NCBI GenBank assembly: GCA_023621995.1
Contig: JAMOAB010000175.1
Span: 1-64,000, forward strand
Length of the DNA: 64,000 bases
DNA from: Bacillota bacterium
GTDB taxonomy: Bacteria > Bacillota > Clostridia > Caldicoprobacterales > Xylanivirgaceae
Reading direction: 5' to 3'
In this document: positions 2,963-56,259 of the stretch, piece by piece
How positions within the stretch are numbered: the stretch's first letter is position 1
Layout of the letters: the number at the start of each line of letters is the position of its first letter
Program-made: the position numbers and the translations under genes
Notes under the pieces: model-generated
Databases searched by the model: none
Told to the model about the DNA's origin: nothing
Seen by the model: the letters and a program-made list of their open reading frames with translations, nothing else

Positions 2963-3038
2963 TGGTGCCTCGAGGCGGAATCGAACCACCGACACGAGGA
3001 TTTTCAATCCACTGCTCTACCGACTGAGCTATCGAGGC
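2963..3038 (-). tRNA. tRNA-Phe (GAA)
   Basis: Normal 76-base gene with acceptor GCCTCGA, anticodon GAA and encoded CCA. The anticodon stem has a U-U mismatch at its second pair. It is the intact relative of the anticodon-arm-less gene at 55949-56007. Confidence 0.95.
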
Positions 3039-55564: not shown

Positions 55565-55593
55565 TTGACATATATAGATAAATATTGTATATT
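55565..55593 (+). promoter_or_regulatory. Promoter of the plus-strand tRNA cluster
   Basis: TTGACA and TATATT are 17 bases apart, 24 bases before tRNA-Pro. The rest of the 55334-55560 spacer is A/T-rich; a TATAAT-like box near 55360 may serve rsbV on the minus strand. Confidence 0.8.
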
Positions 55594-55616: not shown

Positions 55617-55693
55617 CGGGGTGTGGCGCAGTTTGGTAGCGCACGTGCTTTGGGAGCATGGGGCCGGGGGTTCAAGTCCCTCCACCCCGACCA
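55617..55693 (+). tRNA. tRNA-Pro (TGG)
   Basis: Acceptor CGGGGTG/CACCCCG, loop TTTGGGA gives TGG, encoded CCA. Confidence 0.95.
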
Positions 55694-55704
55694 TTAAACG
55701 ATGT

Positions 55705-55779
55705 GACCCCTTGGTCAAGTGGTTAAGACATCGCCCTTTCACGGCGGTATCAGGGGTTCGAGTCCCCTAGGGGTCACCA
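55705..55779 (+). tRNA. tRNA-Glu (TTC)
   Basis: Acceptor GACCCCT, loop TTTCACG gives TTC, encoded CCA. Confidence 0.95.
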
Positions 55780-55787
55780 TTAATTTA

Positions 55788-55864
55788 GGGCCTTTAGCTC
55801 AGTTGGTTAGAGCAACCGGCTCATAACCGGTTAGTCCGGGGTTCGAGTCCCTGAAGGCCCACCA
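55788..55864 (+). tRNA. tRNA-Met (CAT), elongator type
   Basis: Acceptor GGGCCTT, loop CTCATAA gives CAT, encoded CCA. It pairs at position 1-72, so it is not the initiator. An Ile2 (lysidine) reading cannot be excluded, but elongator Met fits better. Confidence 0.9.
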
Positions 55865-55868
55865 TTTA

Positions 55869-55945
55869 GGCCCGGTAGTTCAGTTGGTTAGAACGCTAGC
55901 CTGTCACGCTAGAGGCCGAGGGTTCGAGTCCCTTCCGGGTCGCCA
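55869..55945 (+). tRNA. tRNA-Asp (GTC)
   Basis: Acceptor GGCCCGG, loop CTGTCAC gives GTC, encoded CCA. Confidence 0.95.
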
Positions 55946-55948
55946 TTA

Positions 55949-56007
55949 GCCTCGGTAGCTCAGTCGGTAGAGCAGTGTCGGTGGTTCGATTCCGCCCCGA
56001 GGCACCA
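55949..56007 (+). pseudogene. tRNA-Phe-like gene without an anticodon arm
   Basis: These 59 bases match tRNA-Phe (2963-3038) except that exactly 17 bases, the whole anticodon arm (positions 27-43), are missing; GTG flanks the deletion point. Acceptor, D arm, T arm and CCA are intact. Acceptor pair 7-66 is G-C here but A-T in the intact copy, a covariation that keeps pairing. It lies in register in the cluster between tRNA-Asp and tRNA-Tyr. It cannot decode; it may be a dead gene or a non-coding tRNA-like RNA. Confidence 0.85.
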
Positions 56008-56028: not shown

Positions 56029-56113
56029 GGAGGAGTACCCAAGCGGTCAAAGGGGGCAGACTGTAAATCTGTTGGCTCAGCCTTCGATGGTTCGAATCCA
56101 TCCTCCTCCACCA
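56029..56113 (+). tRNA. tRNA-Tyr (GTA)
   Basis: Class II tRNA with long variable arm, loop CTGTAAA gives GTA, encoded CCA. Confidence 0.95.
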
Positions 56114-56132
56114 TTTTAATTTTCTGTGATAC

Positions 56133-56219
56133 GCGAGAGTGGTGGAATTGGCAGACGCATCAGATTCAGGTTCTGATAGTATTAATACTGTGCAGGTTCA
56201 AGTCCTGTCTCTCGCACCA
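56133..56219 (+). tRNA. tRNA-Leu (CAG)
   Basis: Acceptor GCGAGAG, long variable arm, loop TTCAGGT gives CAG, encoded CCA. Last of the cluster. Confidence 0.95.
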
Positions 56220-56230
56220 TATTATAGCCA

Positions 56231-56259
56231 AGATTTGATATTGATCAAATCTTTTTTTA
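56231..56259 (+). terminator. Terminator of the plus-strand tRNA cluster
   Basis: AGATTTGA and TCAAATCT form an 8-bp stem with TTTTTTTAT after it. Confidence 0.9.

What the first reader, a model, noticed from the sequence alone, without database searches (positions are those of the whole stretch)
55949..56007. tRNA-Phe-like gene lacking exactly its anticodon arm
The 59-base gene keeps acceptor, D and T arms and CCA, but the complete 17-base anticodon arm (27-43) is missing, cleanly. Acceptor pair 7-66 changed from A-T to G-C relative to the intact copy, so pairing has been kept. It is in a transcribed tRNA cluster with a consensus promoter and terminator. Simple slippage between flanking GTGs could explain the deletion, but it may also be a minimal tRNA-like RNA (for example a substrate for aminoacyl-tRNA-using enzymes, or a decoy).
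Basis: partly seen in the sequence, partly recalled or inferred. Interest (0 to 1): 0.75.

Follow-up and report, generated by a model that had tools for sequence, protein, structure and literature searches.

The report
Broken tRNA-Phe gene, recent 17-base deletion
One of this bacterium's two tRNA-Phe genes has lost its 17-base anticodon arm through a deletion between two short repeats, found in no relative searched; it is most likely an ordinary, freshly broken spare gene copy (or an assembly error) and not a new kind of RNA.

Summary
Window 55949-56007 is a 59-base tRNA-Phe that keeps its acceptor, D and T arms and CCA but lacks the anticodon arm. It lies in a Pro-Glu-Met-Asp-[Phe]-Tyr-Leu cluster.

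The functional reading is not supported. At the same place, the same-genus genome, a same-family genome and order-level relatives have a full-length tRNA-Phe(GAA). All 59 retained bases equal the same-genus gene minus 17 bases. Those 17 bases are one copy of a GTG direct repeat plus the hairpin between the copies, so 'exactly 27-43' is one of four equivalent descriptions.

The G7-C66 pair is ancestral; A7-U66 belongs to the other copy. No compensatory change happened in the 59-mer.

The armless Phe form was found in no other genome searched. The genome keeps one intact tRNA-Phe (2963-3038). Best reading: a recent, tolerated slippage deletion that made a pseudogene. An assembly error is the main rival, because reads were not available.

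One side result is more interesting: a widespread, strongly covarying class of 58-61-base anticodon-armless tRNA-like RNAs in phages and prophages, two of them next to GOLLD or ROOL RNAs. The window gene does not belong to it.

The parts
55949..56007 (+). tRNA-Phe gene with a 17-base deletion (anticodon arm absent), CCA encoded
55974..55978 (+). deletion junction: between 55974 and 55975, or equivalently up to 3 bases further 3'; the remaining single GTG is 55975-55977
   Evidence: four equivalent breakpoints reproduce the 59-mer from the full-length relative
55565..55593 (+). sigma-70-type promoter TTGACA-17-TATATT of the tRNA cluster
   Evidence: (11/12), also present in G001 and G003
55617..55945 (+). 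upstream cluster members tRNA-Pro(UGG), Glu(UUC), Met(CAU), Asp(GUC)
56029..56219 (+). downstream cluster members tRNA-Tyr(GUA), Leu(CAG)
56230..56258 (+). terminator-like hairpin AAGATTTGAT-ATTG-ATCAAATCTT followed by TTTTT
   Evidence: read directly; too AT-rich for the criteria of the scan
2963..3038 (-). the only intact tRNA-Phe(GAA) found in the genome, with A7-U66

Best explanation
This is a tRNA-Phe(GAA) gene that suffered one recent 17-bp deletion between two GTG direct repeats (positions 27-29 and 44-46), which flank the anticodon-arm hairpin in the ancestral gene. Template slippage (or annealing of the repeats) across that hairpin removes one repeat copy plus the hairpin in a single step, so the clean loss of the anticodon arm is a product of where the repeats lie. 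The RNA is presumably still transcribed and end-processed as part of the seven-gene cluster, but it has no anticodon and lacks the major phenylalanine identity nucleotides. It is therefore a translationally dead pseudogene, tolerated because an intact second tRNA-Phe remains. Shown here: the deletion relative to syntenic full-length orthologues, the repeats, the absence of the form in the genomes searched, and the intact second copy. Inferred: the slippage mechanism, processing, non-function, and that the deletion is real in the organism and not an assembly error.
For: Syntenic full-length tRNA-Phe in the same-genus genome G001, same-family G003 and several order-level relatives with the same gene order. 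The 59 bases equal the G001 gene minus 17 bases with 0 mismatches, with four equivalent breakpoints created by GTG...GTG. The armless Phe form is absent from 60 relatives, from the other order genomes, and from the 391 class and 399 phylum genomes drawn, where the only other hit has a non-Phe linker. A Phe-specific pattern has 0 hits in the GTDB r220 genome collection. The intact second gene is in the same window. Zero substitutions in the retained bases against about 24% mismatches in the cluster spacers (47/62 identical) fits a deletion much younger than the split from G001. The conserved phenylalanine identity set is G34, A35, A36 and A73 (PMC9976931), and the first three are gone.
Against: Reads are not available, so an assembly or consensus error cannot be excluded. 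Zero substitutions in the retained part would also be expected if the 59-mer were under selection. Only one same-genus genome is held, so conservation within the species is untested.
Confidence: 0.75

Rival explanations
1. Assembly, sequencing or library artefact: the organism has a full-length tRNA-Phe here and the hairpin between the GTG repeats was lost in the consensus.
For: The form is seen only in this assembly. The lost stretch is a hairpin between direct repeats, the kind of place where polymerases slip. The genome is a 175-contig draft with 4% estimated contamination. The retained bases are all unchanged.
Against: The other 51 of 52 Rfam tRNA matches in the same genome are 71 bases or longer, so no other such collapse is seen. 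The junction contains no N, whereas assembly-gap cases in other genomes from the pattern search do contain N runs.
Confidence: 0.2
2. A selected minimal tRNA-like RNA (decoy, or substrate of enzymes that use only the acceptor-T half of a tRNA).
For: Acceptor, D and T arms and CCA are intact and the fold is confident. Promoter and cluster are intact. Anticodon-armless tRNA-like RNAs with strong covariation do exist in phages, so the shape can be a maintained RNA.
Against: Not conserved even within the genus. No compensatory change. No dedicated gene next to it; neighbours are a SigB/F-type sigma module, CheR and IspH-RpsA. The linker is 6 nt, shorter than in all 22 phage-type elements aligned (8-11 nt).
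Confidence: 0.04
3. Member of the phage anticodon-armless tRNA-like class, acquired horizontally.
For: Same overall architecture.
Against: Gene order, flanks and all 59 bases match the chromosomal tRNA-Phe of relatives. No viral contig hit has this linker. The best phage-record matches are full-length tRNA-Phe genes or partial matches.
Confidence: 0.01

Closest known systems
Bacterial tRNA-Phe(GAA), cluster copy of relatives
   Same: All 59 retained bases identical to the same-genus and same-family genes; same promoter, neighbours and order
   Different: 17 bases (one GTG plus the anticodon hairpin) deleted
tRNA pseudogenes / tRNA gene fragments of prokaryotes (PMC9897764)
   Same: A non-canonical leftover of a duplicated tRNA gene that automated tools may miss or mis-call
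   Different: Most described there are fragments left by integrating elements; this one is an internal deletion with both ends and CCA intact
Phage anticodon-armless tRNA-like RNAs (pattern class found here; one in phage Danklef_1 is annotated as tRNA-OTHER, NNN)
   Same: Acceptor, D and T arms without an anticodon arm, about 58-61 nt
   Different: Phage context, usually no encoded CCA, linker usually 8-11 nt with its own sequence, found across many phages; not a deletion of a syntenic tRNA
Mitochondrial tRNAs lacking D and/or T arms (PMC7609411)
   Same: A reduced cloverleaf
   Different: Those keep the anticodon arm and lose side arms; here it is the reverse, so decoding is impossible

Membership tests
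tRNA-Phe (functional elongator tRNA) | acceptor, D and T arms with CCA | tested here: met
tRNA-Phe (functional elongator tRNA) | anticodon arm with GAA, and identity nucleotides G34, A35, A36 | tested here: not met
   arm absent; identity set from PMC9976931
tRNA pseudogene made by deletion | intact syntenic orthologue in close relatives | tested here: met
tRNA pseudogene made by deletion | functional backup copy in the genome | tested here: met
   window 2963-3038
tRNA pseudogene made by deletion | deletion bounded by direct repeats | tested here: met
   GTG at 27 and 44 of the ancestral gene
tRNA pseudogene made by deletion | RNA not charged and not used in translation | not testable with these tools
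   needs northern blot, small-RNA sequencing or aminoacylation assay
Phage anticodon-armless tRNA-like RNA class | phage or prophage context | tested here: not met
   chromosomal tRNA cluster between housekeeping genes
Phage anticodon-armless tRNA-like RNA class | usual linker of 8-11 nt between D and T arms | tested here: not met
   6 nt here (AGTGTC); 8-11 nt in all 22 elements aligned. Among hits not aligned the linker varies more: 6 nt in L100, up to 15 nt in some viral contigs
YrlA (Y RNA-like) | score at or above the Rfam cut-off | tested here: not met
   29.8 bits against a cut-off of 69; the match spans the neighbouring tRNA-Asp

The most novel reading that the evidence does not exclude
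The 59-nt RNA is a stable product used by this species as a tRNA-like decoy or non-decoding acceptor, derived in one step from a spare tRNA-Phe and resembling the anticodon-armless RNAs of phages.
Probability: 0.03. Interest if true: 0.75.

Novelty: new member of a known kind. Interest (0 to 1): 0.12.

Why it matters
As a finding in itself it matters little. It is a clear example of how a two-copy tRNA gene can be lost in one step by repeat-mediated hairpin deletion, leaving a deceptively clean 'minimal tRNA'. It warns that an intact fold, promoter and paired acceptor do not imply function when the event is recent. The control search matters more: anticodon-armless tRNA-like RNAs with strong acceptor-stem covariation are a recurrent feature of phages and prophages, and I found no description of them in the papers I could search.

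Tried and rejected
A Phe-specific armless pattern over genome contigs gave 0 hits. The generic armless pattern gave 71 genome and 51 viral stretches: 23 of them match only because of N runs in the assembly, many of the rest (mostly Bacteroidetes) have no matching acceptor stem, and about a dozen genomes plus most viral ones are true armless elements, mostly of phage type. The other class hit, G344 = L210, has the same matched sequence as L086, with 3 of 7 acceptor pairs, so it is not an armless tRNA. YrlA and plastid 'matches' are below their cut-offs and are overlaps with tRNAs. Plasmid hits at 60-95% identity look like ordinary tRNA clusters and were not pursued. Literature searches for anticodon-armless bacterial tRNA genes or phage tRNA-like RNAs without an anticodon found no direct precedent in the held library.

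Full report
Observation. The 59-base gene is present at 55949-56007 on the + strand, between tRNA-Asp and tRNA-Tyr of a Pro-Glu-Met-Asp-[59-mer]-Tyr-Leu cluster. Rfam scores it as a tRNA at 46.8 bits with the anticodon arm missing, and it folds almost uniquely into acceptor, D and T arms. A tRNA-shaped 59-mer with a perfect acceptor stem inside a tRNA cluster is not a chance match.

Comparison with relatives. The window lies in a 3.08-Mb, 175-contig draft genome, G000. The same cluster was fetched from relatives. Same-genus G001, same-family G003 and order-level G022, G007, G016 and G004 have all seven genes in the same order with a full-length tRNA-Phe(GAA); G005, G027, G023 and G018 have partial or rearranged versions that also keep a full-length tRNA-Phe. 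A Phe-specific armless pattern is found in none of 60 relatives. A generic armless pattern is found in none of 29 other order genomes, in one other of 391 class genomes (a non-Phe sequence identical in its matched part to L086, which has 3 of 7 acceptor pairs) and in none of 398 other phylum genomes. The Phe-specific pattern has no match in the GTDB r220 contigs.

The deletion. Removing 17 bases from the G001 or G003 cluster gene reproduces the 59-mer exactly. The cut can start at any of four positions, because GTG occurs at 27-29 and again at 44-46 of the ancestral gene. So '27-43' is one of four equivalent descriptions, and the cleanness follows from where the repeats lie. The stretch between the repeats forms a hairpin. 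Inference: slippage or repeat annealing across that hairpin.

The 7-66 pair. All ten syntenic relatives examined have G7-C66 in the cluster copy.

Age and function. Against G001 the 59 retained bases have no mismatch, while the six spacers of the cluster are 47/62 identical. Had the gene been unconstrained since that split, roughly 8 substitutions would be expected in 59 bases (my estimate from the spacer mismatch, half the Jukes-Cantor distance; the spacers are short, so it is rough). The deletion is therefore much younger than the split, or is an assembly error; or, less likely given that no relative shares it, the 59-mer is under selection. The strictly conserved phenylalanine identity nucleotides G34, A35 and A36 (PMC9976931) are gone, so charging by PheRS should be very poor, and decoding is impossible. 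The genome keeps one intact tRNA-Phe; most relatives checked have two. Loss of one copy leaves decoding possible.

Neighbourhood. Flanking genes are an anti-sigma antagonist, an RsbW/SpoIIAB-like anti-sigma factor, a SigB/F/G-family sigma factor, CheR and an IspH-RpsA fusion. Nothing next to the cluster suggests an aminoacyl-tRNA-using enzyme or a mobile element.

Artefact question. The other tRNA matches of this genome have full length, which argues against a general hairpin-collapse problem, but raw reads are needed. I give an artefact 20%.

Side result. To ask whether armless tRNAs exist elsewhere as conserved things, I scanned genomes and viral contigs with a generic pattern. After removing assembly gaps and non-tRNA matches, a coherent class remained in phages and prophages of many hosts: mostly 58-61 nt, 7 of 7 acceptor pairs in most, D and T arms, and a linker usually of 8-11 nt instead of the anticodon arm. 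In 22 such elements plus the window gene, 99.7% of cells pair, all seven acceptor pairs change on both sides, and the covariation score is 0.74 against 0.16 in shuffles; the D arm and T loop are fixed partly because the search pattern required them. One sits 4 nt after a GOLLD RNA and just before the terminase genes (L077), one overlaps the 3' end of a ROOL match (L105), and the isolate phage Danklef_1 carries one annotated 'tRNA-OTHER, NNN'. GOLLD and ROOL are known to lie near tRNA islands (PMC12286853). The window gene is not of this class: chromosomal synteny, 6-nt linker, encoded CCA.

Verdict. A real but ordinary feature: a newly broken tRNA-Phe copy, or less likely an assembly error. 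Interest is low for the finding itself.

Noticed in passing
L077:3818-3876, L105:5675-5733, L146:6685-6742, L162:4672-4730, L107:3554-3611, L140:1566-1623, L153:12856-12913, L212:1500-1557 and others: A widespread class of 58-61-nt anticodon-armless tRNA-like RNAs in phages and prophages: complete, strongly covarying acceptor stems, D and T arms, linker usually 8-11 nt, mostly no encoded CCA. They are not called by ARAGORN in the loci tested and the annotated one seen is an 'undetermined tRNA'. The contexts differ (before terminase, after the major head protein, near DNA polymerase). No description was found in the searched papers.
   Followed up: partly
L077:3426-3876 and L105:5675-6304: Two of these armless elements lie directly at the 3' end of giant phage RNAs: GOLLD, 4 nt away in a Streptococcus porci genome, and ROOL, overlapping its 3' end in a Lactobacillus. 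This suggests a shared transcript or a 3'-end tRNA-like tag; untested.
   Followed up: partly
L082, L085, L093, L101, L120, L126 (Larkinella and Spirosoma) and other Bacteroidetes hits: D-arm and T-arm consensus motifs with an 11-15-nt linker but no matching acceptor stem (2-5 of 7 pairs), recurrent across Bacteroidetes genomes. What they are was not worked out.
   Followed up: no
window 2963-3038 (-) and L008:1725-1800 (-): The full-length tRNA-Phe genes of this genus have a U28-U42 mismatch in the anticodon stem, where the same-family genome has U-G (sequences).
   Followed up: no
L067, L072, L073, L078, L081, L084 and others (23 loci): Many draft genomes, often UBA metagenome assemblies, have N-run gaps just after the start of the tRNA D arm, which can imitate truncated tRNA genes in pattern searches.
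   Followed up: partly
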